From NCBI GenBank assembly GCA_963693285.1, contig OY848923.1, positions 6,776,920-6,840,919 on the forward strand: a stretch of 64,000 bases of DNA, written 5' to 3'. Both the position numbers and the translations under genes were made by a program. The stretch is from Xestospongia muta (taxonomy: Eukaryota > Porifera > Demospongiae > Haplosclerida > Petrosiidae). The notes below the pieces were generated by a model. It saw only the letters and a program-made list of their open reading frames with translations, did no database searches and had not been told where the DNA came from. This document shows, in pieces, positions 26,310 through 61,099 of the stretch. Positions within the stretch are counted from its first letter, which is position 1. Every line of letters begins with the position of its first letter.

Positions 26310-28317
26310 ATGGAATTTACTAAGTCAAATTCTGATATAAAGAGAGCATTAGGAATCCAGCTTGTCAACATTGAACCTGGTCTTAGTGATCACCAATTAC
26401 ACTCTCTTAAACTGGCTTGCTTCCTCCTGGATATACCAAGACAACAACTAGAGAATGCTGACACATTTATAGACCTCTATCAATTGATAGAACACAAGAT
26501 GCCTCAACATGCACCCTCACTGATCTATCAGATGCTTATTCTTGTTGGATTTCCTAAACCACTTTTAAGAGGTTTGCTACCATTTGTTAACATGGAGATT
26601 CAATTGGAAGAAAACCAAATAATTGACTTAACTTTGACTATCTCATTTATATTGGGAGAAATCTCAGAAAAGAGTTATCAAAAATTCAAAGAACTGTCTC
26701 GATTGACATTTCTTCCTGAGTATCATACATCTCGAATCTCATCACGCTCACATCTTTTAGAACTATTACAAGATAGGAATGTTCTTACTCCAAATAATCT
26801 GATTTATATGTTTGCATGGCTTCAGGCAGCTGGTTGTCCTCTACAAGTTGAATATCTTCGAGAATTTTGTGCTCGCCAAAGTCTCACAGTACCTGATTGG
26901 AGTGAATTACAATTACCAGAATTAGGTGAGTTTATGTGTATAATTATAAAGATAAGTTATTTACTAATTACATAATAATGTAAATTCTATAAAGTCATTT
27001 TCCTTTTAGAGATTTGTTTACTAACAAAATAATTAAATTAATGTCCCTCCTACCTTGTTTTCATTGTTGTTTTCAAGTATAATTTACCACGCCTATAAGT
27101 TAAGAATTGGTACACAATCACCCAAATAGTCTGTTTGATATTTATTTTAAAATTAGGTAATGATTTTGAAGATTATAATGTTGAAACTGATGGTGCTAAA
27201 ATTGACAGGTTTATCTTTGAAGTCATGACAAAACATCAAAGATGTAAGTACATTACATTAATATTAGAGTTTATATATACTGTGCATATGCAACCATTTT
27301 GTAGGTCTTTTCTGTACTATGAAATGCACCATATGTTCTGTGTTGTTAGTGGTCCTACCACTGCTTTTAACAATCCTGTCTATTAGTGGTTTTGTTGTTT
27401 TTTACAATGGTCTACAGCACATTTCTTTACATTCAGTCCATGATATTGGAGGTAATACATCAGTGATTATAGAACCCAGTTGTTACAACACACTTTGGAT
27501 TAAAGAAGTTACTATCAGTAATGTTAAAGGATATGAAAATGATCCAGTAAAAATAACTCTTCATAAAACGAGTAAAGATACTCTTGACTATATAGCAAAA
27601 CAACCAAAACAGGTAAACTTTAAGTATAAACCAGTTCGTATAAATCAACGTACATCCTTCAACATTCTGTATGGTAATGCACCAATCTATTCAGCTGGTA
27701 ATGGTACACTTACGTATACCTTCAGTTTCAGAGCTGATGTTAATTTTACTGTTTGTCCTCTTGAGCTACACATTTTTGATAATTACAAAAATTATAACCA
27801 TTACTTATCCTCTACAAATAGACAGAACAGTCCTACTTCTAGCAAAGATTGTACTATCAGTTCAGTGAATACCACACTTCAAAAACACATTATCGTCTAC
27901 CACCTCTATCCAAATAGCTTCTACTACTTTGCTGTAGGGTTAACAAGATATCTTTACGTCAATGTAACAATCACAGGAATGTTGGAAGAGTATGACATAT
28001 CTAATCTGACTTCAGAGAAATGTGTTCTGACTTCTAATGTCACTTCATGTACTGTCCCTGTCACTGATTCTACCATAAGTGATACACAAGACTACATCTG
28101 TCTTCTGGCAAGATCTAGCAATAAAAATCGAGGAAATATTACAGTAGATGTAACTCCAGCCAACTGGAACATTGGTAGTGTAACTTGTCTTTTCTTTAGT
28201 ACCATAACTACTTTGTTCACAGTATGTGTCATCATATCTATAGTTCTATATATAATAAGACATGTTAGAAAAGAGTCTGATGTTATTTCTCAATACACTG
28301 ACTTGTTGACAGACTGA
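26310..28317 (+). CDS. Family D gene D2: tandem-DED two-pass membrane protein
   Basis: Three exons (26310-26925, 27157-27243, 27305-28317) join to 571 residues. Residues about 12-92 and 105-187 each fit a death effector domain: hydrophobic helix starts, LKLACFLLDIP and FKELSRLTFLP as helix 2-3 equivalents, and LLELLQDR in DED2. An acidic linker (exon 2) leads to a juxtamembrane cysteine cluster and a first membrane segment near 244-268. Next come a luminal or extracellular region of about 260 residues with many N-x-S/T sites and six conserved cysteines, a second membrane segment and the tail QYTDLLTD. With no signal peptide, both ends should be cytosolic. DEDs normally bind other DEDs in caspase-8/FADD-type complexes. 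The start is ATG at 26310, giving exon 1 the family length of 616 nt. Confidence 0.75.
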
Positions 28318-28504
28318 TATATGATTATGTTATTAATATAACTTATAGAGAGTGCTAACAATTTATTGCATTATTCATATTTATCATGTTACTATTTTAA
28401 CAATTATAATTGCATTTTTAAGTAATAGTTACAATCCTGAGTATAAAGGCTGTTACTATGGAATCAATACTTAGATATGTTGGGGATACACTCTTGACTG
28501 TCAT

Positions 28505-28755
28505 TATCAAGTGTTACTTAACTTGTATGTATTCTGTTGTGTTAATTTACTGAGCTTATTAATAACCTGTATTTGATTATGTATGTGGGTTTTGTTTCAT
28601 CCTACACAATGTTATGTGTTCTAGAATGTTCTTGAATTACTTAGTGTATAAAAACCATTGATTTTGTATTGTTTTTGTTCAGTCGAGATAGTTGTTGTTG
28701 AACTTAGCTACACAGGAGGAAAATTCGATCAAGATACACCTTATTTATTATACAG
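28505..28755. mobile_element. Possible solo LTR, second copy
   Basis: Nearly identical to 21296-21545 and placed identically after the D2 gene, so it was duplicated with the gene rather than inserted twice. Confidence 0.25.
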
Positions 28756-29305
28756 ATACGATTAGATTAAATGTTGACATCACTGCTAACTAGTTGTCTA
28801 CATAATATGTCCAAATTAAGTTGCATTTTTCATACAGGACTTACACAATCAAACTGATATCTACCTTTACTTTGACATCTTTGTATTGTATACTGCTGTG
28901 AAAGTTAATATGTAACTAATGTGTACTAGCTTACAATGATAGATTACTATCCATGGAATATGGAATTCATAGTTCGTGTTAATTTGTTTAATTTTAGTAG
29001 TATAATGAACCAATAAATTGTACGTATACAGTGAGTAATTGACATTAAGTCTTTAAACATTTTGTACAACAAGTACCGATCTATTGAACTATTAATAGTA
29101 GAATTATGTATACCTTCAGTTTCATGATCAGAACTGATATTAATTTTACTGTTTGTCCTCTTGAACTACATTACTTTTCCTCTACAGATAGACAGAACAG
29201 TCCTACTACTAGCAAAGATTGTACTATCAGTTCAGTGAATACCACACTTCAAAAGCACACTGTAGTCTACCATCTCTATCTAAATACCTTCTACTACTAT
29301 GCCCA
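28755..29305 (+). pseudogene. Truncated D copy: intron 1 joined to ectodomain
   Basis: Bases 28755-29090 match D1 intron 1 (19520-19860). Bases 29106-29305 match the middle of the ectodomain, with an internal deletion before the LELHYF codons. Similarity stops at 29305, where the V exon 7 sequence starts. DEDs, linker and both membrane segments are lost. Confidence 0.7.
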
Positions 29306-29600
29306 AGTAAATATTTTCGACAGTTATTGGTAATACCACTATTTAACAATTGAATCCAATCAGTTTTGAGTCAGGAAGTGAGATAGTTTGAGGAATAGAT
29401 TCTATCTTGGGCTGTGGAGATCTTGATTGATAAATCTATAATGTATAAAAAACAAGTAATAATATATAGTTTCTTCTCTGATGATGTACCTGCTTTAGAA
29501 AGGTAACAATGGTATCAGTCTTGAAATGTAATTTGTCTTTTGGTATTGTAAAATAGCATATTAAATACACTGTTAAGATTGGACTGACTGTCAGGACTAT
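29305..29600 (-). pseudogene. Family V relic V5
   Basis: The minus strand keeps most of the module-2 end exon (29305-29441) and the C-x-F exon (about 29493-29597). The end exon lacks its terminal L/F-G-x-x-Y because it is fused to the D scrap at 29305, and it has an internal deletion. The 29600-29960 stretch upstream has splice-like signals but no recognised exon. Confidence 0.55.
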
Positions 29601-30120
29601 ATCAACAAAATAAACATTGTCCTCACTGTAAAAATAGTTTTGTCATCTCAACAAATTTTTCACAAATGAAAAAGGATGGTATGTAATACCATTTATTTTA
29701 ATCCATGCGGATCTATAAGGAAGACAAAAAGAACATTGGAGAAACAAAAGATAATTAATTCAAATCCTCAATATAAACTATATTTACCTATAAACAGAGT
29801 CAGTATCCAAAATATTTGATATGAATTGCATAATACTTATCTTGTACTCAGTTGATAGTGAGGAAAACAATGTTGAATCTTTAGCTATAAAAATATATAA
29901 ACAAAGAACATCATAAACATATTTGTTATGGTATTATTGGTATCATTCATTCATCCATGCAATCAGGAATGAATAACAAGAAAGGAAAGTACATGTGAAC
30001 TGACTCCTTCAAGAGCTCTCCAAAGTTATGTTATTATATTTAGGTTAATAACTTTATTAACTCATAAATATTAATATAGCAGTTGTGGGTAAGAGCTACA
30101 TGTAATCATTATCAATACAT

Positions 30121-30181
30121 TTATATCTATCTATCTATCTATCTATCTATCCATTCATCCATCCATCCATCCATCTCTCTG

Positions 30182-30279
<98 letters not shown>

Positions 30280-30406
30280 CATCCAATCCATCCATCCATC
30301 CATCCATCCATCCATCCATCCATCCATCCATCCATCCATCCATCCATCCATCCATCCATCCATCCATCCATCCATCCATCTATCTATCTATCTATATATA
30401 TATATA
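30121..30406 (+). repeat. Compound (ATCT)n(ATCC)n microsatellite
   Basis: Alternating blocks of ATCT and ATCC units, with short CATTCATCC and AATCC interruptions, end in (TA)n. The open frames inside are translation of the repeat, not genes. Confidence 0.95.
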
Positions 30407-30409
30407 ATA

Positions 30410-30950
30410 TTTATATAGTTATGTTGTACTTTTTATTATGTCATTTAAAAGTCATAAAGTTACTCTTAAGCCTATCAGAGATATTTTCTTAGAAGTTTGC
30501 ATTTTCCTTCTCTGTTGCATTACAAGGTCATATACCAATTACAATGCATGCTAGTCCAAATATAATAACACAACTCCAACAACTAGCATTTAAATCATTT
30601 TTGTGAGAGTTCCATACTCTATTTACAATAATGAATGCACCATATTTATGCATATAGTTATATATTCATAATGCAAACTTGAAAGAACATAGCTGATTGA
30701 GAAACTAAAGAGTCTATGTCCGAAAATGTAAGTATTAAAATGAGTTTTATTTCAATACTTTAACCTCACTTATTATTGTTAAACATGAATATTTGACCTA
30801 AAATATGTTTTACAACATAAATTTGCTTATATTTATATTATTCTGTTATTAAACATTCTTAAACAATTGCTAGTTCTAGAATTTTAAAGTTTTCTATCAA
30901 TATCCTGTTTCTATGATATTTTTGATGTCTGTATTTTCATGTTGCAAACT
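30410..30950. other. AT-rich DNA, nothing recognised
   Basis: No open frame, paralogue or repeat structure was seen in this stretch. Confidence 0.5.
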
Positions 30951-30954
30951 TTCA

Positions 30955-32030
30955 ACTACCTCAAGACATTATGCATGTGATGCTTGAAGGTGTCATACCC
31001 TATGAGATGAAGCTAATGCTGTAACAATTTATAAATAATGAACATTACTTCACCCTCAGTGTTCTAAATGACAGGATACTATGTTTTCCATACAGTCCAG
31101 AAGAGATTTATGAAAAACCACCACCAATAAAAGCAGAACATTCAATAGCAGGGAATAAATCAAAATTTCAACATTCTGGTTTGTGTGGAATTAGAAATAT
31201 TATTACCAGTTTTAATTTATTTACTTACATAGCTGCTCAAATGTGGACATTGGCAAGGTACTTGCCATTGATCATTGGTAATAAAGTTCCAACAAATAAT
31301 CAGCTGTGGGATTGCTATCTAATGCTGCTAGACATTTTAGAAATTTGTACTGCAAGTGTATTGTCTGTTGGTTTAGTTAATTACTTGAGTGCTTTGATTG
31401 AAGACCATCATGTTATGTTCTGTTCAACCAACCTCCTTTACCACTAATAATTTAATTTAGTTATGAATATTACTTCACAGCATTCTTCAAAGACATGATG
31501 TTGTTGTTGTTTTGGAATAGCCATTCTTAAACCTACTATTAACAATTAACACCATTCTATTGAAACAGTTTGGAGCAAAAGAAATAATATCTTATTATGT
31601 TTTGATGATTTCTTTTACTGCATACGCTTTTGGTGAAGTGCCTTTATTTTTATTTTCATTGACACAGCATGGAACTCCCCCAGCTGAGGCAACAGATCGA
31701 GCCAACAATCAACCACACATTGTGGTATTTACAGATGACGATGCTGTAGATGATCCAATGAACCAGTACTTTTTATAGCAGTGGAACAAACTCTATTAAA
31801 TGCAGTGCAGTAATACCATTTCAGCAATCTTCTTCTTGTTGGCCGCTCACTATATTTTTAATAAGGCATACCATCTTAAGACAAATGATATTCTAACATT
31901 CCTCCAGCATAAAGTGGCAAACCTACCACTACAAGTAGACCATAAGTGGGGCACAGTACCTGGTACCCATATTGCTGGATTGGATTGCCAATACAAATCT
32001 TTCATCACAGAGGAGATGGACATTTGACCT
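30955..32030 (+). pseudogene. Decayed copy of the CMC-like transposase, 3-prime half
   Basis: The plus strand retains the block equivalent to VPDIMHDVLEG (QDIMHVMLEGVIPYEMKLML followed by a stop). It is followed by a conserved exon with AAQMWTLARYLPLIIG (31214 onward) and the IEDHHVMF segment, then further fragments to about 32030. Frames change repeatedly and termini are not visible. It is clearly diverged from the 3.9-6.9 kb gene, so it is an older insertion. Confidence 0.65.
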
Positions 32031-32564
32031 AGAATCCTGCTGTTCTATTGATTATTTGTTTCACTTTGATATGATTTTGACAATTTCTTTGTTATAAATA
32101 AGTTGTAAAAAATACCTATGACAAAAATCAATATGACAATTTAAAAGGCAACTTGTTGTCTAAACAATAATAGCATGCTAAACAAGCAACAATGAAATAC
32201 AAACTGTGATCACATAGGTTCAGTTAACAAGTTTCAACATTTGTTTCACAAACTCACTTGTCATTTTAACACAACATCTGTCATTGTAATTCTTCTGTTA
32301 TATCAACAAATAATGGAGCTGTTGTTTGAAACTCATTGCCCACACAAACAAAGTTTGTTAAAATAACAATATTTTATTTATAGTGCCCATTATTGAAATC
32401 TTAGCAGATATGACAGTAGAAATGGTTGTAGTTAGCTCATTCCTTAATAGGCTATGTTTCTTTAGTATAATATATAAATTGCCCAAAACAATAACAAAAT
32501 AATAGCAAAATAATCAAATTATCAATTTATTGTAATACAACCTACAAGTTCCAGCTTGACATTA

Positions 32565-34927: not shown

Positions 34928-34972
34928 ACTGATTGTTGCACTGTCTACTAAAATTAGCACACTTCTACACTG

Positions 34973-34985
34973 CCTTATATATAAA
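34973..34985 (-). promoter_or_regulatory. TATA-like box of V6
   Basis: TTTATATATAAGG on the minus strand lies 46-58 bases before the ATG and is conserved with V9 and the 13.3 kb copy. Confidence 0.55.
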
Positions 34986-34994
34986 GCAGTCAGT

Positions 34995-35153
34995 GCATTA
35001 GATGTACAAGATATATATATATAGTGAGTGGGGCATGATTACCTTATAAGGTAACTGTGGCCCACTTTATACTGTGTGAAGAAGCCCACTATATATTGTG
35101 CTTTCTATCTTATCTGCCAAATTCTCATATAAACCTCTGAAATAATTAGATGT

Positions 35154-35199
<46 letters not shown>

Positions 35200-35290
35200 G
35201 TGGGCCATGAGTACCTTATAAGGTAACCATGGCCCACTTTATACTCTGTAAAGAGGCCAACTTTATGTCATTCTATAATGTATCTACACT
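34995..35290. repeat. Two palindrome units plus (TA)n upstream of V6
   Basis: Degenerate 38-bp palindromes at 35028-35065 and 35200-35237 flank a (TA)n tract at 35157-35194. They sit about 100-310 bases upstream of the V6 start. Confidence 0.75.
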
Positions 35291-35387
35291 TATTATAATT
35301 AGTCTAGAGAACATTCTAGAACATAATTAGACAACAGAACCAGGCATCTATTCATGTGTGCAATGGGCAATCAACACTTGTTATAAT

Positions 35388-35860: not shown

Positions 35861-35905
35861 ATCTACCAAATTCTCATGTAAACCACTGAAATAATTAGAT
35901 GTACA

Positions 35906-37196: not shown

Positions 37197-39479
37197 ATGA
37201 AATCTGCACAGTCGAATCTTCAGTTCAAGAGAACATTAGGAATCCAGCTTGTCAACATTGAACCTGGTCTTAGTGATCACCAATTACACTCTCTCAAACT
37301 GGCTTGCTTCCTCCTGGATATACCAAGACAACAACTAGAGAATGCTGACACATTTATTGACCTCTACCAATTGATAGAACATAAGATGCCTCAGCACGCA
37401 CCCTCACTGGTCTATCAGATGCTTATTCTTGTTGGGTTTCCTAAATCACATTTACAAGGCTTGCTACCATTTGTTGAAATGAAGATTCGTTTGGAGAAAA
37501 ATCTGGTTATGGATTTAACTTTGACATTGTCATTTATACTGGGAGATATATCAGAAAAAAGTTATCAAAAATTTAAGGAACTAGCTCGACTTATGTTTCT
37601 TCCAGAATATCATACATCTCGAATCTTGTCACGTTCACATCTTTTAGAACTGTTACAAGATAGGAACACTCTCATTCCAGATCATCTGGTTTATATGTTT
37701 GCATGGCTTGAAGCAGCTGGTTGTCCTCTACAAGTGGAATATCTTCGAGAATTTTGTGTTCGTCAAAGTCTCACAGTCCCAGATTGGAGTGAATTACAGC
37801 TACCAGAATTAGGTGAGTTTCTATATTGCTGCACTATTCCACTAAACTAGATTTTTTATTTATTTAATCAAATTAATTAAACCAAATTGGCTGGCATGTG
37901 GTTAATATCAGAGCTATGGAAATTCTAGTTATCATCTCATTAATATTAGTTAAACGGAAATTTTAATTGATGTTAGTTCAGATGCATATTTAATAGCCTG
38001 CATGTCACTATCATATTGTAATAGTATAGCTCTCCATAACACATACACCATTTTTAATAAGTCATTTGTTAAGCAATCATATAATGTTAATAATACTTTG
38101 TAAGTATGCAACATAAGTAACACAACACAATGTTAACCAATCTCTTTAACAATGATACTACAACTTCACATTGTAATGAAATTAGTTATGTCCTATTCAT
38201 ACATGCATATAATGTCTTCATTATATTTATTCAGTATAGTACAACCACGTGTGTCTTATATAAATTATTGGTCAAATATGCTACTGTGATCTCAGTTCAT
38301 TTTTACTGTTTGCTCATGAAATAGGTGCTGATTATGAAGATGATGCTGTTGATATAGATGGTGCTAGAATTGACAGATTTATTCTTGAAGTCATGGCAAA
38401 ACGTCAAAGATGTAAGTCTGTGAATTATCAGAATTTTGATGCATAGCACTCCATCATTTGTAGGTCGTTTCTGTACAGTGAAATGTACCATATGTTCTAT
38501 ATTATTAATAGTCTTACCACTGCTTATAACAATCGTCTCTATTAGTGGTTTTGGAGTATTTTACATTGGTTTAAAAGCTATTTCTTTACATTCAGTTCGC
38601 GACATCGGTAGTAATACATCAGTAATTATCGAACCTAACTGTTACAAGTCTTTTTGGACAAAAAAGCTTATTATCAGTAACACAAAAGGATATAGTAATG
38701 ATCCTGTGACAGTTACCTTTTATAAGACAAATGCGAATACCCTTCACTTAATAGCAAAACAATTGAAAGGAAGAAACGAGACATATAATCCAACCGGTGT
38801 TACTATTCGCAAAGGTATGAACTATTTAGTTGATGCCCCAATTTATTCAGCTGGTAATAGTACACTTACTTATACCTTCAGTTTCAAAGCTGATATTAAC
38901 TTTACTACTTGTCCTCTTGAACTACATATGTTTGATGACTATCAGAAATATTGTCACTATCTACTACATCCTTATGATCAACATAATGGTCCTATTTCTA
39001 GTCCGAATTGTACTCTTAATTCAGTGAATTCTACACTTCAAAGCCACATTGTAAACTTTTCTCTCCATCCAAATACATTCTACTACTTTGCTGTAGGGTT
39101 AACAAAAGATTTATATGTTAATATAACAATTGGTGGAAAGTTAGAAGAGTTTCAAGTCTCTGATCTGACTCCAGAAAAATGTGTTCTGAATGTTGACACA
39201 CCTTCCTGTACTTTTCCAATTGCTTATTCGAGTTTAAGCTTTGCACAAGACTCTATCTGTCTACTTGCTCAATCTAACAGCAACAATCAAAAAAATGTTA
39301 CAGTAGATGTCACTCTGGCCAACTGGAATGGTGGTAGTGTCACTTGTCTTTTATTTAGTGCTGCCACTGGTTTTATTACAGTATGTATCATCTTAACGCT
39401 AGTTCTATTTATAGTCTGGCATATAAGAAAAGAGTCAGCTGTTATTTCTCAATATACTGACTTGTTGACTGGTGATTAG
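37197..39479 (+). CDS. Family D gene D3: tandem-DED two-pass membrane protein
   Basis: Exons 37197-37812, 38325-38411 and 38464-39479 give 572 residues. DED1 is about 12-92 (LKLACFLLDIP, LYQLIEHKMP, LILVGFP); DED2 is about 105-187 (FKELARLMFLPEYH, LLELLQDR, YMFAWLEAAG). The exon 2 linker is acidic. Residues 235-245 hold four cysteines (CRFCTVKCTIC) just before membrane segment 244-268. The ectodomain carries eight or more N-x-S/T sites, the six family cysteines and one extra cysteine (YQKYCHYLL) where D4 and D5 have histidine. Membrane segment 2 is about 531-555, and the tail ends YTDLLTGD. A longer in-frame start at 37110 exists, but the ATG at 37197 matches D2. AATAAA is at 39678-39683. Confidence 0.8.
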
Positions 39480-43671: not shown

Positions 43672-46027
43672 ATGAAATCTGCACAATCGAATCTTCAGTT
43701 CAAGAGAACATTAGGAATCCAGCTTGTCAACATTGAACCTGGTCTTAGTGATCACCAATTACACTCTCTCAAACTGGCTTGCTTCCTCCTGGATATACCA
43801 AGACAACAACTAGAGAATGCTGACACATTTATTGACCTCTACCAACTGATAGAACACAAGATGCCTCAGCACGCACCCTCACTGATCTATCAGATGCTTA
43901 TTCTTGTTGGATTTCCTAAATCACATTTACAAGGCTTGCTACCATTTGTTGAAATGAAGATTCGTTTAGAGAAAAACCTGGTTATGGACTTAACTTTGAC
44001 ATTGTCATTTATACTAGGAGATATATCAGAAAGAAGTTATCAAAAATTTAAGGAACTAGCTCGACTTACGTTTCTTCCAGAGTATCATATATCTCGAATC
44101 TTGTCACGTTCACATCTTTTAGAACTGTTACAAGATAGGAACACTCTCATTCCAGATCATCTGGTTTATATGTTTGCATGGCTTGAAGTAGCTGGTTGTC
44201 CTCTACAAGTTGAGTATCTTCAAGAATTTTGTGTCCGTCAAAGTCTCACGGTGCCAGATTGGAGTGAATTACAGCTACCAGAATTAGGTGAGTTTCTATA
44301 TTGCTGCACTATTCCACTAAACTAGATTGATTAATTTACTTAACCAATGGTCATTCAATCTACACATAATAAAAGATGAGACACAGAGAAGTAATAAATA
44401 TTGCACTGTTTCATTATATAATATGCTGATTAAAATTTGGGTGGCATGTCGTTAATTGTCAGAACTATGGTAATTCTATTAATCATCTCATTAGTTAGAC
44501 GAAACTTTTAAATTGATGTTAGTTCAGATGCATATTTAATAGACCTGCATGTCACTATCATATTGTAATAGTATAGCTCTCCATAACACACACACCATTT
44601 TTAATAAGTCATTTGTTAAGGAATCATATAATGTTAATAATACTTTGTAAGTATGCAACATAAGTAACACAACACAATGTTAACCAATCTCTTTAACAAT
44701 GATACTACAACTTCACATTGTAATGAAATTAGTTATGTCCTATTCATACATGCATATAATGTCTTCATTATATTTATTCAGTATAGTACAACCATGTGTG
44801 TCTTATATAAATTATTGGTCAAATACGACTCTGTGATCTCAGTTCATTTTTACTATTTGCTCATGAAATAGGTGCTGATTATGAAGATGATACTGTTGAT
44901 ATAGATGGTGCTAAAATTGACAGATTTATTCTTGAAGTCATGGCAAAACGTCAAAGATGTAAGTCTGTGAATTAGCAGAATCTTGATGCATAGCACTCTA
45001 TCATTTTGTAGGCCGTTTCTGTACAGTGAAATGTACTATATGTTCTATACTATTAATAGTCTTACCACTGGTTTTAACAATCGTCTCTATTAGTGGTTTT
45101 GGAGTATTTTACATTGGTTTAAAAGATATTTCTTTACATTCAGTTCACAACATCGGAAGTAATACATCAGTAATTATTGAACCTAACTGTTACGACTCTT
45201 TTTGGACAAAAAATGTCATTATCAGTAACACAAAAGGATATAGTAATAATCCTGTGACAGTTACCTTTTATAAGACAAATGTGAATACCCTTCACTTAAT
45301 AGCAAAACAATTGAAAGGAAGAAACGAGACATATAATCCAAATGGTGTTAATTATCGCGAAGGTATGAACTATTTAGTTGATGCCCCAATTTATTCAGCT
45401 GGTAATAGTACACTTACTTACACCTTCAGTTTCAGAGCTGATGTTAACTTTACTACTTGTCCTCTTGAACTACATATGTTTGATGACTATCAGAAATATC
45501 ATCACTATCTACTACATCCTTATGATCAACGTAATGGTCCTATTTCTAGTCCAAATTGTAGTCTTAATTCAGTGAATTCCACACTTCAAAGCCACATTGT
45601 AAACTTTCATCTCCATCCAAATACCTTCTATTACTTTGCTGTAGGGTTAGCAAAAGATTTATATGTTAATATAACAATTGGTGGAAAGTTAGAAGAGTTT
45701 CAAGTCTCTGATCTGACTCCAGAAAAATGTGTCCTGAATGTTGACACACCTTCCTGTACTATCCCAATTGCTTATTCGAGTTTAAGTTTTGCACAAGACT
45801 CTATCTGTCTACTTGCTCAATCTAACAGCAACAATCAAAAAAATGTTACAGTAGATGTCACTCTGGCCAACTGGAATGCTGGTAGTGTCACTTGTCTTTC
45901 ATTTAGTGCTGCGACTGGTTTTATTACAATATGTATCATCTTAACACTAGTTCTATTTATAGTCTGGCATATAAGAAAAGAGTCAGCTGTTATTTCTCAA
46001 TATACTGACTTGTTGACTGGTGATTAG
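43672..46027 (+). CDS. Family D gene D4: tandem-DED two-pass membrane protein
   Basis: Exons 43672-44287, 44872-44958 and 45012-46027 give 572 residues, the same exon lengths as D3. The two DEDs differ from D3 at only a few positions (for example SERSYQ for SEKSYQ, and WLEVAG for WLEAAG). All six ectodomain cysteines and both membrane segments are kept. The tail ends YTDLLTGD with the YTDL sorting-type motif. AATAAA is at 46225-46230. It is followed convergently by relic V8. Copies D3, D4 and D5 are recent duplicates; D2 is more distant. Confidence 0.8.
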
Positions 46028-48759: not shown

Positions 48760-49222
48760 GCAAGGAACTGCTTGTTATCGTTGTGGACATCTTCCTACAG
48801 GTTGTCGATTTAAGGACTACTAATGCCATTATTGTGGTAAAACAGGGCACTTACAGAAGGTGTGTCGTAAGAAGAAGAATGGTCATAGGAAGACACAACA
48901 ACAGCGTTCACAAAAAAGACAGCAACGTGATTTAGAAACCAAAACACTTACTGTTGTATCAGATGATGGTGAGCCGGAAACAGAGTTTCTCACTATGTAC
49001 CCAGTGAAAATGACATCTGTGAAGCCAATTCGGGTGTCAGTGGTGATTAATGGTCAAAGTTTGGATATGGAACTCGACACTGGTGCATCTGTATCACTTA
49101 TAAGTGAGTCAACATACTTCAAATTGTGGAATTCTGATAGCCTACCAACACTCAAGCCATCAAAAGTTCGTTTAAAGACATACAAGAAGCGTGGTGGAAG
49201 TTGTTGGTGTACTAAATGTTGA
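48760..49222 (+). pseudogene. Ty3 nucleocapsid zinc knuckles and protease
   Basis: Two CCHC-like knuckles (CYRCGHLPTGC and CHYCGKTGHLQKVC) are separated by a TAA. An aspartic protease core with LDTGAS (active-site D at 49076-49078) follows. The frame ends early at 49222. Confidence 0.75.
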
Positions 49223-49247
49223 AGCTAGTTACTAGGATCAAAACAAA

Positions 49248-50230
49248 GTGGTACAACTACATGTTGTAAAGGGGGATGGACCTAGTTTATTAGGCAGAGA
49301 CTGGCTCCAGGTAATCAAATTGAATTGGGCTCAAATAAATCTAGTATCAAGCCCCTCTCCTGCTTTAGACAAGTTACTGGACAAGCATGCTGCACTATTC
49401 CAGGAAGGACTAGGTTTACTTAAAGATGTCACTGTCAAGTTACATGTTCGTCCAGATTGTGTTCCCAAATTCCACAAGCCTCGTCCGGTACCATTTGCAC
49501 TTAGAGAAGGAGTTGAGAAAGAGTTGGAAAGACTACAGAGTCTGGGAGTAATCAAGCCAGTTGCTACATCAGACTGGGCAGCACCAATAGTGCTTCTGGT
49601 TAAAAGAGATCATTCAATTAGAGTGTGTGGAGATTACAAACTGACTATTAATCAAGCTAGTAACACAGAAACTTACCCTCTACCTTGTATAGAGGAAATA
49701 TTTGCATCACTTTCAGGTGGTAAAACTTTTACAAAGTTGGATTTACAGAATGCGTAACAACAGCTATTGTTACAGGAGAAGAGTCAAGAACTGGTAACAA
49801 TAAACACACACAGGGGGTTGTTCCAATATACACGGCTACCCTTCAGGATAGCTTCTGCACCTGCAATTTTCCAAAGGACTATGGAAACAGTGTTACAAGG
49901 CTTCCCGGGTGTATGTGTATACTTGGACGACATTCTAGTTACAGGAGCATCTGAAAAGGAGTACTTGGAACACCTGAAATTAGTGTTGCAGAGATTAGAA
50001 GGTGTTGGTTTACGGCTAAGGAGAAGTAAATGTCAGTTTATGGTGTCTCATGTAGAGTACCTTGGCCATCGCATTGACCAAGAGGGATTACATCCAACAG
50101 CTGGAAAGGTAGAAGCGATACAGAAAGCTCCAGCTCCAACTAACAAGACTCAGCTCAAAGCATTTCTTGGTTTGGTAAATTATTATTGCAAATTCTTACC
50201 TCATTTGTCTTCTAGGTTGTCACCACTCTA
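49248..50230 (+). pseudogene. Ty3 reverse transcriptase
   Basis: RT motifs are seen in order: VIKPVATSDWAAPIVLL, RVCGDYKLTIN, FTKLDLQNA, then the catalytic YLDD box near 49919-49930 and LGLVNYYCKFLP. A TAA at 49756-49758, where a tyrosine codon is expected, interrupts the domain, so the polymerase cannot be made in one piece. Confidence 0.85.
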
Positions 50231-50319
50231 TTTGTTGCTCAGGAAGAACAGTTGGTGGTGTTTGATTAAAGCGCAAGAGAATGCATTTCAAGCTGTCAAG
50301 TCAGGATTGTCTTCAGATC

Positions 50320-51925
50320 TGTTGTTAGTTCATTTTGACCCAAACAAGAAGATTGTTTTGACCTGTGATGCCTCACCATATGGGGTGGGGGCGGTCATAT
50401 CTCATCTCATGAATGATGGCACAGAACGTCCAATTTCTTTTGTCTTTAGGACATTGTCACAGGCAGAGCGTAACTATGCTCATATAGAGAAGGAAGGATT
50501 AGCCATAATATTTGGTCTATGGCATTTCCATTCTTATCTGTTTGGGAGACATTTTACTATTTGCTCTGACCATCAACCACTAAGGTATCTCTTTGGAGAG
50601 AATAAAGCAGTGCCAACACTAGCATCTGCTCGTATTCAATGCTGGGCACTGATTTTGAGTTCATATAGTTATACCGTGTTATACAAACCGGGTAGTCAAA
50701 CACCTCATGCGGATGCACTGAGTAGGTTACCACAAGATGTCCCAACACCCTCCACAGTTGAACCACAAGAAGAGGAAGTATTTTTGTTTGCAGACCACCA
50801 AGGTTCAATGGTAGTCACTAGTAAACAAGTCAAGTATTTTACAGCTCATGATCCTGTCTTATCAGCAGTAGTTAGGTTTATTCTCCAAGGTTGGGCTACC
50901 AAATTAGACAATCAGGGCTTACAGCCATATTGGTGTAGATGTCCAGAACTGACTGTGATTGATAATTGTTTATTGTGGGGCTCAAGGGTTGTTATACCTC
51001 CACAAATTCAGGATTCAGTGTTAAAAGAGCTTCATGATATGCATATTGGTATATCAAGAATGAAGTCCCTCACTTGTAGTTATGTCTGGTGGCCTTCACT
51101 TAATAAAGATATTGAAACAATGGTTAGGACTTGTATACCTTGTCAAAGTTTGTTCAATGCACCTGCTGCTGTTCCACTACACCCGTGGGAGTGGCCACAA
51201 CGTCTTTGGTGCAGGTTGCATTTGGACTATGCGGGACCATTCATGGGGAAGATGTTTTTAGTTGTTGTGGACACCCTCTCAAAATGGCTAGAAATCAAGA
51301 TGGTATCTAGAGCAACATCAAAAGCCACCATAGTATGCATGTCTTCAGTCAATATATGCCACACATGGTCTTTCAGAGAGAGTGGTAACGGATAATGGTA
51401 GCCTGTTCACTAGTGAGGAGTTTAAGGCATTTTTAGAAGCAAATGGTATTGCTCATTCTACTAGCTCCCCATACCATCCAGCCTCTAATGGGTTGGGAGA
51501 GAGGGCAGTCCAGAGTTTTAAGCAGTCTATGAGGAAGTTCACCAGTGGATCAATTGAGTCCAAGCTGTCACGGTTCTTATTTACTTACTGGCTCACTCCT
51601 CATGCTACCACATCACAGTCTCCAGCAGAGGTGTTATTTAAACGTCGCCCACAGTCCAGATTAGATATCCTGGTTCCTAGTATTGAGCAAGTGGTTGAAC
51701 AACCGACGTCAGGACAATCAGAAGAAAAGTCATGATATTCATAGTGCTACTCGTGTGTTTGCTATAGGTGACTCAATTTTTATTAAGGACTTCCGTCCTG
51801 GCAGTAAACATTGGCTGTCTGGAAAGATAGTAGAATTGTTGGGTCCGGTGTCAGCTCGAGTCAAGTTGTTGAATGGAGAATTTCATAGACGTCATTTGAC
51901 CATATACGAATGTGTCAAGTAGCAG
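50320..51925 (+). pseudogene. Ty3 RNase H and integrase, first copy
   Basis: RNase H begins with the acidic motif LTCDASPYGVGA. Integrase has H-x3-H with C-x2-C (HDMHIG and CIPCQ), a catalytic core with LDYAGP, VTDNGS and NGLGERAVQ, and a C-terminal GPVSARVKL segment. A 4-nt insertion near 51335 shifts the frame between the first and second core acidic residues, and another shift lies near 51710. Confidence 0.85.
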
Positions 51926-52076
51926 ACCAAGACTATTCACCTGTAACGTCAGTTGATAGCAGGGTTGTTGTAATCAGTAGTTGTAATTGTAATGATTATT
52001 AATAATTACATTATCTCAAAGAAATTGTAATGTAATTACACTAAGTAATTGTAATCAATTAGTAATTCAGTGCCAT

Positions 52077-53618
52077 CTCATGAATGATGGCACAGAACGT
52101 CCAATTTCTTTTGTCTCTAGGACATTGTCACAGGCAGAGCGTAACTATGCTCACATAGAGAAGGAAGGATCAGCCATAATATTTGGTGTACGACGTTTCC
52201 ATTCTTATTTGTTCGGGAGACATTTTACTATTTGCTCTGACCATCAACTACTAAGGTTACCGTATCTCTTTGGAGAAAATAAAGCAGTGCCAACACTAGC
52301 ATCTGCTCATATTCAAAACTGGGCACTGATTTTGAGTTCATATAGTTACACCGTGTCATACAAACTGGGTAGTCAAATACCTCATGCGGATGCACTGAGT
52401 AGGTTACCACAAGATGTCCCAACGCCCTCCACAGTTGAAGCACAAGCAGAGGAAGTATTTTTTTTGCAGAACACCAAGGTCCAATGGTAGTCACTAGTAA
52501 ACAAGTCAAGTATTTTACAGCTGGTGATCCTGTCTTATCAGCAGTAGTTAGGTTTACTCTCCAAGGTTGGCCTACCAAAATGGACAATCAGGGCTTACAT
52601 CCATATTGGTGTAGACGTCCAGAACTGACTGTGATTGATAATTGTTTATTGTGGGGCTCAAGGGTTGTTATACCTCCACAAATTTGGGATTCAGTGTTAA
52701 AAGAGCTTCATGATACGCATATTGGTATATCAAGAATGAAGTCCCTCACTCGTAGTTATGTCTGGTGGCCTTCACTTAATAAAGATATTGAAACAACAGT
52801 TCGGACTTGTATACCTTGTCAAAGTTTGCTCAGTGCACCTGCTGCAGTTCCACTACACCCGTGGGAGTGGCCACAACGTCCTTGGTGCAGGTTGCATTTG
52901 GACTATGCGGGACCATTCATGGGGAAGATGTTTTTAATTGTTGGGGACGCCCACTCAAAATGGCTAGAAGTCAAGATGGTACCTGCAGCAATGTCAAAAG
53001 CCAGCATAGTATGTCTTCAGTCAATATTTGCCACACATGGTCTTCCAGAGAGAGTGGTAACGGATAACAGTAGCATGTTCACTAGTGAGGAGTTTAAGGC
53101 ATTTCTAGAAGCAAATGGTATTGCTCATTCTACTAGCTCCCCATACCATCCAGCCTCTAATGGGTTAGCAGAGAGGGCAGTCCAGAGTTTTAAGCAGTCT
53201 ATGAGGAAGTTCACCAGTGGATCAATTTAGTCCAAGCTGTCACGGTTCTTATTTACTTACTGCCTCACTCCTCATGCTATCACATCACAGTCTCCAGCAG
53301 AGGTGTTATTTAAACGTCGCCCATGGTCCAGATTAGATATCCTGGTTCCTAGTATTGAGCAAGTGGTTGAATGAACGACGTCAGGACAATCAGAAGAAAA
53401 GTCATGATATTCATAGTGCTACTCGTGTGTTTGCTATAGGTGACTCAGTTTTTATTAAGGACATCCGTCCTGGCAGTAAACATTGGCTGCCTGGAAAGAT
53501 AGTAGAATTGTTGGGTCCGGTGTCAGCTCGAGTCAAGTTGTTGAATGGAGAATTTCATAGATGTCATTTTGACCATATACGAATGTCTCAAGTACCAGAC
53601 CAGACTATTCACCTGTAA
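52077..53618 (+). pseudogene. Ty3 RNase H and integrase, duplicated second copy
   Basis: This stretch repeats 50398-51939 in the same orientation at an offset of about 1679 bases, starting in mid RNase H (MNDGTERPISF). It lacks the 4-nt insertion of copy 1, but has a frameshift near 52475, TAG near 53228 and TGA near 53370. The 51960-52076 joint is AT-rich with repeated GTAATTA motifs. Confidence 0.85.
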
Positions 53619-53907
53619 CGTCAGTTGATAGTAATACCGAAGTTTGGACATCTAGCGTCCCTATACCAGTTGATTAACAGTTGGTGGACTCAGGTGGTAC
53701 CTCTACACTCGCTTGCCCACCCACATCAAATGATCCAGCAACATCCATTGGTGCAACAGTTTGTCGTTCTACACGTCAATGTACAGCACCCAATAGATGG
53801 GACCCAAGTTTCAAGTAACTACTATAACCTGTATATTGGTTTGTGAGTTAATGTTTACTCTTATGATTTGTGTAGTTATTGAATAATCCCACCGAATTAG
53901 GGGGAAG

Positions 53908-54086
53908 TGTAATAATTTGTGTGTTTAATTACTTAATATTCATTATGTAATGATTATGTGATAATTATGTTTTTTGTAAGCATGCGCTTAGAGCACGAGT
54001 CGAGCTAGTCATTCCTTCTTGTAAATAAGTTGTTGTTAATCTTCTCTAATCTTGATTGTTCGTTAGCGTGGTCTCAGGTTACATCA
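53908..54086 (+). repeat. 3-prime LTR
   Basis: It starts TGTAATAATTTGTGTG, ends TTACATCA and is followed by the GTTGT target duplicate. Confidence 0.9.
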
Positions 54087-54091
54087 GTTGT

Positions 54092-54725
54092 ATAAATTAT
54101 ATTAATCTACATATTGGGTTTACACATAAAGCACAAAGATCAATTGAAATACTTAATGAGCACACACATTACCTCCTAGTAAAAAAGCGTGAATGAATAC
54201 TGTAAAGATATGGACATCCTCTACATATGTATGACTCAAGCTAACATCTTTTGTTGTGGAAAAAACTTGACAATGTTTCTCTTGATTATCATCATCTACT
54301 GAGATAGTAAAAAATATATAATTATATAAATTTATGCCATATCATATGTTTTAAATTCAATTTTTAGCTCACCATCAGACAGATACAGAATGAAACCAGT
54401 TCCTTCAGTACTACATGATCAGTTCCATTTCAAGTAAGAAATACCAGTTATCAAAGTTACTTCCTGACTAATCAAATGCCCCTTATGCAATTATGATCTC
54501 GGATTGGTTCTATCATATCTAGTCTGGTAGGAAATATACATTTATAGCATACAATTAATGAAACAAATCACTTGTATTCTGGTCCAAGGTAAGTGGCTAT
54601 AGCTTGATGTATTTCTTCATGTGTTATATTTATGTCATATACATTAATACCAAGTTTGATTATATTGAATGCACTCAATGTCTTTCCTGCTTGATCCAAA
54701 GACTGAAGATAGACACAACTATATA
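54092..54725 (-). pseudogene. Family V relic V8, 5-prime part
   Basis: Remains of the extra strand exon (about 54180-54300), the hairpin exon (about 54375-54520, with indels in and after the V-P-x-G-T codons) and the module-1 end exon (54565-54720). It continues the 46.7-47.9 kb relic across the retrotransposon. Confidence 0.55.
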
Positions 54726-55081
54726 CTGCATGCTGTTGTTCAGGTAATTATTTACTTTGTTTAGTGACTGCTCAGTCAATTTAGTTAACTTTACTATTTA
54801 TTTAATAATGTGGGACTTCAGTTCCCAGTAGATTACTGTCGCATCTGTTAACATCTGCTATGATAGATAGTAATTATGATAATTAACATTATAACACAAT
54901 CATAGCAAGCATGTACACCCATTTTTGAAATCTTAGCAGATATGACAAAAGAACTGGTTGTAGTTAGCTGATTCCTTAATAGGCTATGTTTCTTTAGTAT
55001 AATATATAAATTGATCAAATAATAACAAAATCAAATTATCAATTTATTGTAATACAAACTACAAGTTCCAACTTGACATCA

Positions 55082-56825
55082 TTAAAATGCAACACTACAA
55101 GGAAGATGAAGAAATTACTATAAGATCATTAATATGAAGAAGTGTTTATTACAAATATACACTAGAACTAACACACACAACCTTTATATAAATCATAGGA
55201 GTCTTACATATAATTGCTTCCTAGGTATTCCTGCAAAAGTGTAGAAATGTCCTGATTACTGGTTTCAGGAATGTTACGAATTAGGATACTGAGCCCAACA
55301 GAAAGGAGTTCAGAAGAACCTGATGAATAACTATGATCCCATTCCGTATAGGTTAATGTAAACACGCTGACATAACTGTTAAACGGCTGATAGTCTTGTA
55401 GATGCTGTAAAAATGCTTTCAATAACAAATATAAACATGATATCTTCCATATACTTGCTGAATTTGTTGATTGATGTTACTTGCAATAAGATGTTCATGA
55501 CCAGTAATATCAAAACAACAACTTAGCCGTATAGCAATAGACTTGGTTGTATCTATGAACAAACAAGATACCAAAATGTATCGATGTCAAATTAATATAT
55601 TTAACTCAGAGACATATAGTCTAATGAATTTAAGCAGATATTAACCAGAAAATGCTATTGTATAAGAACAAATTTATATGTATTGAAAAACCTTTAATAC
55701 ATGCAAGAACCCTCATGTCTTGAGTTACATAATTGATCATATAAGTAGGTAAAGCCACATGGTTAGTATAAGAGGTTTTAGTAATATTAAAAATTATAAT
55801 AAGTCTCACTTTCCAAATCTACTTTTTGAGTTAGGCGGTAGACACAGGTACCAGTATCAGATATGTGACGAAAAGTGGCTTCTTGTTGTGTTGTGAAGGA
55901 CATGATACTGCCTTTATTAAAGAAAAATTATAGGTATTAGAATTCATGTTTCTATCATTTACAGACCTTGATGATAGGCTTGGAATACATTTCCATTTGC
56001 AATAGAAAGGCCATTTGAAAAATTCAAGTCTGTAACGTCTCCGATAAATTGTTTAACATGGTTTTTGCGTAGACTGATAAAGAAAAGTCAAAAAATTTAT
56101 TTAATTTTTTAAACATTAACATACATATCTAACAAACACTCATTTTTATTTTCAATACTCACATGTATCTTGAACCAAGATATTCACTTACAGCATCGTA
56201 AATATCTTGGTATGTTACTTGACTCTCACCAATAATACTAATACTGATGTCAACAGTTTTTTTACCAGATGGCAGGTTATTTGGGACATCACCTTGCTCC
56301 ACAATTGCTTTAAAATGTTCATCCTTGAAAGCCTATAGAATTAAAGCATGCAATAAATCGTTGCAATTTTTTTTGCCTTAGTTGGTCAGTCTTATGTAGT
56401 CTGTATATATAGTTTATTCGTATCATGAGTAGTCGTGAAAACTTGGCAGTACAGCAGTTTAGTCTTGACCTTAGACCTATATGCAAAAGATTTGTGTGTA
56501 GGTCTGGGACTGAGACTATAGTTTAACACTTTATATTTGTTTGTCCACCACATTATCTAAAAGGTTTTTAGAAATAATTTCATCTTTTTCTCATTGATCA
56601 GGCTTAAGCTTAGTTTGAACCTGGCAACCTCATTCAAAGCTATCAGACTGTTTTAAAATGTGGCAAAGTTTGTGATGAGGCTTAAAATAATATATAAGTC
56701 TATATATTCAGCGACTTGTATGGCAAAAAACATGATTGATGTCTGCAACCTATATAGTAATGAACCTCACTGTGCGTTGGTGCATAGCGAGGGTACTGTA
56801 GCCTGTCAGTGTGTGTATGTGTGTG

Positions 56826-56858
<33 letters not shown>

Positions 56859-57769
56859 TTGTGTGTGTGAGTGTGTGTGAGTGTGTGTGTGTGTGTTACC
56901 CGGGCAAATGGCTTTGAACTCCTTTAACTCGACAAACACGGCACTGGTAGCAACCAAACTGTATAGTGGACGTTAGCAAAACTTCTGTACTTCTTAAGAA
57001 TACTGCTAAAAGGAGCTTCAAACGAAAAAAGCTTTAAAAATCTGAAAAACTTTTTTTAAAAATCACAGCTTTCAGTGAAGACTCGAGAATTCAATAAAAC
57101 CTCCTGCATACAGCTTATGACATTTTCCAACTTTTTAAAGTGAGAATTTTTGCAAAAATACTTCTTTGGAAAGTTATGACAGTTTTACTAACTTTTGGCA
57201 GTTATTTTTGCTGATACATTGAGCGCGAAATAAAAATACTAGCACCATAGCTGTCATTGGAGAATCACTAACTTTTACTAAGAAGTTGGAAAGTATATAT
57301 TAAACCTTTTGTCGATGCAATTAGAGTGCAAAGTACCCAGTAGACGTACCAAAAAACGTTAATCTTTCCCTTTGATTGAAGAGATAGATCTACACTGCAC
57401 ACCACAGCGAGGTTAAGCACTTTCATTGGTATATCATATATGCATTGTGTTTTTCTATGAGGAGAATGTCTGGCTTCAAGAGCTATAGTAAAAACTGTAC
57501 TTTATATGAATTTACCTTTTGTAAAGCTTTCAAAAGAGAGGATTGTTCAGCTTCAACATCACGTTTGAAGTGACAGACTATATCCACAACAATAACTAAA
57601 CAAAGAGTAATAGCTACAAACCAATGCATTATGTATAATCTGTACCTTTAGCAGATGAAACTAGCAAAAAATTGGTCCCAGCTGGAACTGTATACTTCCC
57701 TGAACCAGTATTGTATACATTTAATGTGTTTAGACAGATCAGATGTTGTACTTCTTTGCTCTCTGCCAT
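55082..57769 (-). CDS. Family V gene V9, eight exons, fully open
   Basis: Exons 57646-57769, 57516-57595, 56163-56332, 55967-56073, 55810-55911, 55455-55552, 55208-55404 and 55082-55094 total 891 nt: 296 residues and a stop, all in phase. Module 1 (1-124): hairpin VPAGTNF, then IVCHFKRD, then an exon of 170 nt ending AVSEYLGSRY. Module 2 (125-292): hairpin whose usual I-P-x-G-T reads IANGNVF, a strand exon, SCCFDIT, then an exon ending QEYLGSNY. The last exon adds IVAF. Predicted order in each module is strand-strand-strand-helix-strand-helix. No signal peptide or membrane helix. Intron 2 is about 1.2 kb and holds the GT tract and foldback fragment. A TATA-like box lies upstream. Function unknown; best reference copy of the family. 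Confidence 0.7.
56809..56897 (+). repeat. (GT)n microsatellite
   Basis: An imperfect GT tract with TATGT and GAGT interruptions, inside V9 intron 2. Cysteine/valine-rich frames across it are repeat translations. Confidence 0.95.
56980..57420. mobile_element. Truncated foldback element inside V9 intron 2
   Basis: It matches 35388-35860 in reverse orientation. One arm end (CTTTGATTGAAGAGATAGATC to AGCGAGGTTAAGCACTTT) also matches 11050-11220. Confidence 0.55.
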
Positions 57770-57814
57770 AATAATTGTTGCACTGTCTACTAAAATTAGC
57801 AGACTGCTACACTG

Positions 57815-57827
57815 CCTTATATATAAA
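57815..57827 (-). promoter_or_regulatory. TATA-like box of V9
   Basis: TTTATATATAAGG on the minus strand, 46-58 bases upstream of the ATG at 57769. A degenerate palindrome unit follows at about 57885-57925. Confidence 0.55.
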
Positions 57828-57989
57828 GCAGTCAGTGCATTAGATGTACAAGATATATAGTATATAGTGAGTATATATATATATGTATATATACCTTATA
57901 AGGTAACCATTGTCCACTTTATATTGTGTGAAGAGGTCCACTATTATATCATGCTTTCTATCTTATCTACCAGATTGTCATGTAAACCA

Positions 57990-58817
57990 CTGAAATAATT
58001 AGTTGTTTTAACTGAGTATGTTTTAATATCAATGATAATGTTTTTGTCTAACTAATAAGACTTTAAACAGAATCTTTATGACTCTGACAATGAACTGTAT
58101 GACATCATGTGCATCAATTAGTGTGTGTATTTGAAAAGTTTGATTCATATAATTTTCAGTATCTCATCCTGTATTATGTATGTAAATTCAAACCAATTGA
58201 CCACAGATTACTTAATTTATTTATACAATGATAATTATACTACCATGTTTTGATAACATTTGATGATATCTCTAAAACATCCCACTGGTCACTCTCAGAC
58301 TGGTGTTTTAGTGTGATTATGTGCAGAGAAAGGTGACAATTATTTCTTTTTCCATTTGTATTTTCATTCTAACATACAATGATTCTGTGACAAACAGATA
58401 CACTTAGGACATGACCTTTTCAGTATTATTATAATTAACTACTAGAAGCAACAAGACACCAGACTTACCTTAGATAAAATACTGGGTGTTGTCAAAATGA
58501 TATTTCTTTTTAACAACAGTAAAATTAAAATTTCTCAGAAATATGATATCATGAGGTCATTATAATAAATCTGTAACACTGCATAATGTTATACTGTAAT
58601 TTTGAAACGTTTCTATTTGTAGAAAGGCAATATTTTTGTTGATTTTTAAAAGGGAATTGATCAATATCATTCTGTATTAGTCTGACAATTATTATGATCA
58701 GGCCTTTTAGAACAACCAAGATAGTTATTGCATCCAGAATTAGTAGTAGAAGGGAAGATTAATGTTTATGAATATAATTACATACTAGGTGTGTCTTCGA
58801 CAAGTATTAGAATCATC
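57990..58817. promoter_or_regulatory. 5-prime flank of D5
   Basis: Colinear with the D3 and D4 flanks, but with a deletion of about 100 bases near 58390. The conserved minus-strand donor-like site is near 58465. No gene seen. Confidence 0.4.
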
Positions 58818-61099
58818 ATGAAATCTGCACAGTCGAATCTTCAGTTCAAGAGAACATTAGGAATCCAGCTTGTCAACATTGAACCTGGTCTTAGTGATCA
58901 CCAATTTCACTCTCTCAAACTGGCTTGCTTCCTCCTGGATATACCAAGACAACAACTAGAGAATGCTGACACATTTACTGACCTCTACCAATTGATAGAA
59001 CATAAGATGCCTCAACACGCACCCTCACTGATCTATCAGATGCTTATTCTTGTTGGGTTTCCTAAATCACATTTACAAGGCTTGCTACCATTTGTTGAAA
59101 TGAAGATTCGTTTGGAGAAAAATCTGGTTATGGATTTAACTTTGACATTGTCATTTATACTGGGAGATATATCAGAAAAAAGTTATCAAAAATTTAAGGA
59201 ACTAGCTCGACTTATGTTTCTTCCAGAATATCATACATCTCGAATCTTGTCACGTTCACATCTTTTAGAACTGTTACAAGATAGGAACACTCTCATTCCA
59301 GATCATCTGGTTTATATGTTTGCATGGCTTGAAGCAGCTGGTTGTCCTCTACAAGTTGAATATCTTAGAGAATTTTGTGTCCGTCAAAGTCTCACAGTGC
59401 CAGATTGGAGTGAATTACAGCTACCAGAATTAGGTGAGTTTCTATATTACTGCACTATTCCACTAAACTAGATTTTTATTTATTTAACCAAATTAATTAA
59501 TCAGATTGGCTGGCATGTGGTTAATATCATAGCTATGGAAATTCTATTTATCATCTCATTAATATTAGTTAAACGAAAATTTTAATTGATGTTAGTTCAG
59601 ATGCATATTTAATAGACCTGCATGTCACTATCATATTGTAATAGTATAGTTCTCCATAACACATACACCATTTTTAATAAGTCATTTGTTAAGCAATCAT
59701 ATAATGTTAATAATACTTTGTAAGTATGCAACATAAGTAACACAACACAATGTTAACCAATCTCTTTAACAATGATACTACAACTTCACATTGTAATGAA
59801 ATTAGTTATGTCCTATTCATACATGCACATAATGTCTTCATTATATTTATTCAGTATAGTACAACCACATGTGTCTTATATAAATTATTAGTCAAATATG
59901 CTACTGTGATCTCAGTTCATTTTTACTGTTTGCACATGATATAGGTGCTGATTATGAAGATGATACTGTTGATATAGATGGTGCTAGAATTGACAGATTT
60001 ATTCTTGAAGTCATGGCAAAACGTCAAAGATGTAAGTCTATGAATTATCAGAATTTTGATGCATAGCACTCCATCATTTGTAGGTCGTTTCTGTACAGTG
60101 AAATGTACCATATGTTCTATATTATTAATAGTCTTAGCACTTCTTATAACAATCGTCTCTATTAGTGGTTTTGGAGTCTTTTACATTGGTTTGAAAGATA
60201 TTTCTTTACATTCAGTTCACAACATCGGAAGTAATACATCAGTAATTATTGAACCTAACTGTTACAAGTCTTTTTGGACAAAAAATGTCATTATTAGTAA
60301 CACAAAAGGATATAGTAATGATCCTGTGACAGTTACCTTTTATAAGACAAATGTGAATACCCTTCACTTAATAGCAAAACAATTGAAAGGAAGAAACGAG
60401 ACATATAATCCAAATGGTGTTAATTATCGCGAAGGTATGAACTATTTAGTTGATTCCCCAATTTATTCAGCTGGTAATAGTACACTTACTTATACCTTCA
60501 GTTTCAGAGCTGATATTAACTTTACTACTTGTCCTCTTGAACTACATATGTTTGATGACTATCAGAAATATCATCACTATCTATTACATCCTTATGATCA
60601 ACATAATGGTCCTATTTCTAGTCCGAATTGTACTCTTAATTCAGTGAATTCTACACTTCAAAGCTACATTGTAAACTTTCATCTCCATCCAAATACATTC
60701 TACTACTTTGCTGTAGGGTTAGCAAAAGATTTATATGTTAATTTAACAATTGGTGGAAAGTTAGAAGAGTTTCGAGTCTCTGATCTGACTCCAGAAAAAT
60801 GTGTTCTGAACATTGACACACCTTCCTGTACTTTTCCAATTGCTTATTCGAGTTTAAGCTTTGCACAAAACTCTATCTGTCTACTTGCTCAATCTAACAG
60901 CAACAATCAAAACAATCTTACAGTAGATGTCACTCTGGCCAACTGGAATGGTGGTAGTGTCACTTGTCTTTTATTTAGTGCTGCCACTGGTTTTATTACA
61001 GTATGTATCATCTTAACGCTAGTTCTATTTATAGTCTGGCATATAAGAAAAGAGTCAGCTGTTATTTCTCAATATACTGACTTGTTGACTGGTGATTAG
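58818..61099 (+). CDS. Family D gene D5: tandem-DED two-pass membrane protein
   Basis: Exons 58818-59433, 59945-60031 and 60084-61099 give 572 residues with no stop. The tandem DEDs (12-92 and 105-187), acidic linker, cysteine-rich juxtamembrane segment, first membrane helix (244-268), ectodomain with six cysteines and second membrane helix (531-555) match D3 and D4. Differences cluster in the ectodomain and the first helix (LALLITIVSI). The intron 1 and 2 sequences are nearly the same as in D3, so D3 and D5 are closest relatives even though D4 lies between them. AATAAA is at 61298-61303. Confidence 0.8.

What the first reader, a model, noticed from the sequence alone, without database searches (positions are those of the whole stretch)
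26310..61099. A family of membrane-embedded tandem death-effector-domain proteins
Four open genes and one pseudogene share one architecture: DED-DED, acidic linker, membrane helix, large glycosylated six-cysteine ectodomain, membrane helix, short tail. Seen in sequence: exon 1 is 616 nt and exon 2 is 87 nt in all four open copies. Known: tandem DEDs occur in soluble initiator caspases, FLIP proteins and their viral relatives. I know of no receptor-like protein with tandem cytosolic DEDs on a two-pass ectodomain. If real, it would couple an outside signal directly to DED assembly without a FADD-type adaptor.
Basis: partly seen in the sequence, partly recalled or inferred. Interest (0 to 1): 0.88.

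Follow-up and report, generated by a model that had tools for sequence, protein, structure and literature searches.

The report
Two-pass membrane proteins bearing tandem DEDs
An animal genome carries a cluster of genes whose proteins appear to fuse a caspase-8-like pair of death-effector domains inside the cell to a glycosylated domain outside it, which would give that animal a possible one-piece surface sensor for the cell-death machinery; nothing about its function has been tested.

The parts
18723..21104 (+). D1, decayed copy (exon 1, 2 and 3 pieces, with in-frame stops and frame changes)
   Evidence: tblastn pieces; translations with stops shown
26310..26925 (+). D2 exon 1, tandem DED module (616 nt)
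   Evidence: Pfam DED E 1.9e-7, below cut-off; donor GTGAGT
27157..27243 (+). D2 exon 2, linker (87 nt)
27305..28317 (+). D2 exon 3, TM1, ectodomain, TM2, tail
29058..29303 (+). ectodomain fragment with a stop, between D2 and D3
   Evidence: tblastn; translation
37197..37812 (+). D3 exon 1, tandem DED module
   Evidence: structure model m2a0f64db4103 pLDDT 92.2
38325..38411 (+). D3 exon 2, linker
38464..39479 (+). D3 exon 3, TM1, ectodomain, TM2, tail
   Evidence: structure model ma4f5f793dadf pLDDT 80.5
43672..44287 (+). D4 exon 1, tandem DED module
   Evidence: Pfam DED E 3.7e-5, below cut-off
44872..44958 (+). D4 exon 2, linker
45012..46027 (+). D4 exon 3, TM1, ectodomain, TM2, tail; no in-frame ATG before TM1
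58818..59433 (+). D5 exon 1, tandem DED module
   Evidence: Pfam DED E 1.6e-4, below cut-off
59945..60031 (+). D5 exon 2, linker
60084..61099 (+). D5 exon 3, TM1, ectodomain, TM2, tail
63857..63986 (-). exon-1 fragment (end of DED2), opposite strand, in two frames
   Evidence: tblastn

Best explanation
A tandem-duplicated family of two-pass membrane proteins with both ends in the cytosol. Shown by sequence and model: an N-terminal pair of DEDs packed as in caspase-8 and FLIPs, a linker, a juxtamembrane cysteine cluster, TM1, a beta-sandwich ectodomain with six cysteines and many glycosylation sequons, TM2, and a short tail ending, in near copies, in a conserved Y-x-D-L motif. Inferred mechanism: ligand, cell contact or crowding clusters the ectodomains, which brings the cytosolic DED pairs together; these nucleate or capture soluble DED-bearing partners, such as a caspase-8-like protease, without a Death-domain receptor and FADD step. 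The tail tyrosine motif would govern internalisation. Varied, recombining ectodomains on a conserved DED pair suggest a surveillance role (microbe, damage or self/non-self). I put the anatomy at about 0.9 and the recruitment mechanism at about 0.45; the nature of the ligand is a guess.
Confidence: 0.5

Rival explanations
1. Membrane-tethered FLIP-like inhibitor. The DED pair lacks a caspase domain and the usual R-x-D-L contacts, so it caps or sequesters DED caspases at membranes and restrains death; expansion would tune tolerance, for example of symbionts.
For: No protease domain in the four window genes; nearest solved folds include c-FLIP and viral FLIP MC159; R-x-D-L absent from helix 6 in 30 of 30.
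Against: An inhibitor would not obviously need a large, varied ectodomain. Some activating DEDs also depart from the motif (recalled).
Confidence: 0.25
2. Membrane scaffold or trafficking protein whose DED pair serves non-death partners (as PEA-15 binds ERK2), perhaps on endosomes; the tail Y-x-D-L is a sorting signal.
For: Tail motif conserved in near copies; PEA-15 DED in complex with ERK2 is among the fold matches.
Against: PEA-15 has one DED; both DEDs are kept here, and exon 1 (0.31 bits per site, 15 near copies) is more conserved than the ectodomain (0.82 bits, 20 near copies).
Confidence: 0.15
3. Exon 1 and exon 3 belong to separate genes, or exon 1 is also spliced to make a soluble tandem DED.
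For: No RNA evidence here; D2 has an in-frame Met just before TM1 in exon 3; D3 and D5 have an in-frame ATG within intron 2; the C3 copy lacks an ectodomain.
Against: Ungapped 87-nt exon 2 with matching phase-1 junctions; D4 has no in-frame ATG before TM1; pairing kept in 11 of 12 copies.
Confidence: 0.07

Closest known systems
Caspase-8 / c-FLIP / viral FLIP tandem DED (MC159)
   Same: Two DEDs packed in tandem; best solved-structure matches over both domains
   Different: Those are soluble (recalled); here the pair sits on a two-pass membrane protein, with no caspase or pseudocaspase domain and no R-x-D-L in helix 6
Oyster (Crassostrea virginica) ectodomain-TM-DED-TRADD-N expansion (PMC8195603, section 10 read)
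   Same: Multigene family with a Cys-rich ectodomain, TM and cytosolic DED
   Different: One TM, one DED after the TM, followed by TRADD-N and variable domains; here two DEDs precede TM1 and there is a second TM
Amphioxus TNFR-caspase fusion (PMC2575513, section 9 read)
   Same: Same idea: a surface domain wired directly to the death machinery; cDNA-backed
   Different: TNFR ectodomain and a caspase domain, no DED pair described
TNF-receptor-type death receptors (Fas, TRAIL receptors)
   Same: Ectodomain linked to a death-fold module at the membrane
   Different: They carry a C-terminal Death domain and need FADD; unrelated ectodomain and topology (recalled)
CD36 / SCARB two-pass scavenger receptors (recalled)
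   Same: Both ends cytosolic, one glycosylated six-cysteine ectodomain between two TM helices, cytosolic cysteines near the membrane
   Different: Not compared directly; Pfam finds no CD36 family match in exon 3; no DEDs; a likeness of topology only

Membership tests
DED (Pfam PF01335) | death fold of six helices, most like DEDs | tested here: met
DED (Pfam PF01335) | score over the curated profile cut-off | tested here: inconclusive
   Four window copies 22.2-31.7 bits against 35.9; 12 of 12 copies match at E up to 0.01; 11 of 26 homologues carry a precomputed PF01335
DED (Pfam PF01335) | R-x-D-L assembly motif in helix 6 (typical, not a defining or universal feature; recalled) | tested here: not met
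   0 of 30 sequences at helix 6 of either DED; one sequence (P0036) has R-L-D-L elsewhere
tandem-DED proteins (caspase-8, c-FLIP, vFLIP) | two DEDs in tandem packed as one unit | tested here: met
   Alignments run through model residues 12-193 to whole tandem-DED chains
tandem-DED proteins (caspase-8, c-FLIP) | C-terminal caspase or pseudocaspase domain | tested here: not met
   The 571-572 aa are accounted for by DEDs, linker, TMs, ectodomain and tail; no peptidase match in the exon-1 and exon-3 frames
TNFR-type death receptor | cytosolic Death domain and Cys-rich TNFR repeats | tested here: not met
   Pfam scan of the four exon-1 and four exon-3 frames finds neither at E up to 1
oyster TM-DED-TRADD-N receptors | single DED plus TRADD-N after one TM | tested here: not met
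   Two DEDs before TM1; the tail after TM2 is about 15 residues
DED-initiated signalling receptor | ectodomain clustering drives DED assembly and caspase recruitment | not testable with these tools
   needs cell experiments

The most novel reading that the evidence does not exclude
A self-contained receptor class in an early-branching animal: a varied, recombining ectodomain is fused in one polypeptide to a filament-forming DED pair, so ligand or cell contact seeds caspase-8-type assemblies directly, with no Death-domain receptor and no FADD. It could serve self/non-self or microbe recognition, with paralogs trading ectodomains under a constant death module.
Probability: 0.3. Interest if true: 0.85.

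Novelty: new variant of a known kind. Interest (0 to 1): 0.63.

Why it matters
Death receptors are usually thought to reach DED caspases through a Death domain and FADD. A family that places a caspase-8-like DED pair directly under an ectodomain would give a simpler wiring for extrinsic cell death, and a testable clue to how such pathways arose. A constant DED exon with diverging, recombining ectodomains in a tandem cluster is what one looks for in recognition systems of animals without adaptive immunity.

Full report
What is there. The window lies at C7:6776920-6840919 of a 158-Mb genome in 28 contigs. Four open genes share three exons: exon 1 of 616 nt, exon 2 of 87 nt, exon 3 of 1013-1016 nt, with GT-AG splice sites and phase-1 junctions, giving proteins of 571 or 572 residues (the script started from the stated lengths and checked sites and frame). 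A decayed copy lies at 18723-21104, an ectodomain fragment at 29058-29303 and an opposite-strand exon-1 fragment at 63857-63986. D2 is the useful comparison, because D3 against D4 and D5 still have introns 94-98% alike. Between D2 and D3 the three exons align nearly end to end (87, 83 and 75%), while the first intron and both flanks look like shuffled sequence; the short second intron (61 and 52 nt) is 80% alike over 49 positions. That pattern is hard to explain unless the three pieces are spliced together. In D3-D5 the first in-frame methionine of exon 3 is residue 353, well inside the ectodomain; D2 has one at residue 240, just before TM1. D3 and D5 have an in-frame ATG within intron 2; D4 does not. 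So for D4 at least, TM1 cannot be reached without the upstream exons or an unusual start.

The family in the genome. Exon 1 gives 15 matched rows: 12 open copies plus three rows from decayed D1. Eleven open copies lie at C7:6.744-6.884 Mb and one on C3. All eleven C7 copies have, 0.3 to 3.2 kb downstream on the same strand, a long frame with a hydrophobic segment at each end (hydropathy). One of these, near C7:6853888, ends right after TM2 without the tail and has no start codon directly before exon 1, so it may be decaying. The most distant copies are telling. The minus-strand gene at C7:6744280 has exon 1 at 56% and ectodomain at 32% identity to D3. L020, with 40-42% identical DEDs, is followed by linker-like frames and then a TM-ectodomain-TM frame in L072, which pairwise search did not link to the window but profile comparison does (26% identity, probability 99.2). 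For L020 and L021 I did not model the exon joins. The C3 copy has no ectodomain within the 8 kb downstream that I read, and none was matched on C3; it sits among Death-domain and other exons. The ectodomain family is larger than the DED family: further copies reach to about C7:7.11 Mb, with one place on C6 and fragments with stops on C1, and one of them seems to have a short N terminus without DEDs. So the DED pair was probably joined to, or lost from, an existing two-pass ectodomain family.

How it evolves. Exon 1 has pairwise dN/dS 0.11-0.24 among D2-D5 and exon 3 has 0.32-0.73, so the DEDs are more constrained. Site variability is 0.31 bits in exon 1 (15 near copies of 30) and 0.82 in the ectodomain (20 near copies of 32), but TM2 is higher still at 1.17, so the ectodomain is not singled out. 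The exon-1 and exon-3 trees of nine genes (of the 11 with both exons) reject each other (AU p 1.25e-4 and 9e-57). For example, D2's DED exon is closest to the gene at 6746971 (dS 0.116), whose ectodomain is far away (dS 0.689), while D2's ectodomain is closest to that at 6765394 (dS 0.100; its DED exon 0.232). Conversion or exon exchange among paralogs is the simplest cause.

How it may work. The genome has 106 caspase-fold matches, and a tandem DED frame on C6 lies about 1.6 kb upstream of a caspase domain on the same strand, which looks like a caspase-8-type gene. The simplest reading of the anatomy is a surface protein whose clustering presents paired DEDs to such caspases. The main rival is an inhibitor tethered to the membrane, in the manner of FLIPs, which the missing R-x-D-L would suit. 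Sequence cannot decide between them.

What is known. In my searches of open-access full text (listings, plus passages of the papers named here) I saw no tandem DED on a two-pass ectodomain. I did find membrane DED receptors: an oyster family of about 50 proteins with Cys-rich ectodomain, TM, DED and TRADD-N (PMC8195603, section 10 read whole), and a cDNA-backed TNFR-caspase fusion in amphioxus (PMC2575513, section 9 read whole). PMC4704026 notes many DED proteins in two haplosclerid sponges, and PMC12909245 lists 7 DED proteins in Dysidea avara (passages only). PMC5094078, PMC11797021, PMC2246300 and PMC4021871 were seen in passages only; other papers in search listings only. So the kind, a membrane receptor with a DED, is known; the tandem, N-terminal, two-pass arrangement is a new variant as far as these searches show.

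Corrected: helix counts of the second DED, the D2 methionine, the list of distant homologues, the C6 motif counts, the capsid rows and the TM2 variability. Hydropathy of the other copies was added.

Noticed in passing
window 48824-53230: Frames for a Ty3/gypsy-like retrotransposon (protease-, reverse transcriptase-, RNase H- and integrase-like reading, recalled) in two partly repeated pieces between D4 and D5; only listed.
   Followed up: no
window 6192-6857 (-): Frame with a C2H2 zinc finger match (PF24757, 26.1 bits, cut-off 25).
   Followed up: partly
window, about 10150-10540: Long tetranucleotide repeat that reads as a run of S-I-Y-L in all three + frames.
   Followed up: no
C3:11851001-11861332 (L073, L017): The C3 tandem-DED exon sits in a repeated set of exons; a neighbouring unit has a Death domain (PF00531, E 1e-8) where this one has the DED pair, which suggests swapping of adaptor exons.
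   Followed up: partly
C7:6883884-6888650 (L021, L035, L038): Behind a distant DED-DED copy and its ectodomain lies a second ectodomain frame with its own ATG and no exon-1 match of its own.
   Followed up: partly
C7:6856883-6857899 (L028): Open ectodomain exon on the minus strand with no exon-1 match upstream; a possible DED-less copy.
   Followed up: partly
C6:580964-582247 (L002): A 475-residue open frame with four DED matches, not part of this family.
   Followed up: no
P0002-P0005, P0007, P0009-P0012: Nine of 12 ectodomain homologues match the best of 13 genome copies compared at only 80-88%, while three match at over 99%; they may come from another haplotype, individual or species, so copy content may vary.
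   Followed up: partly
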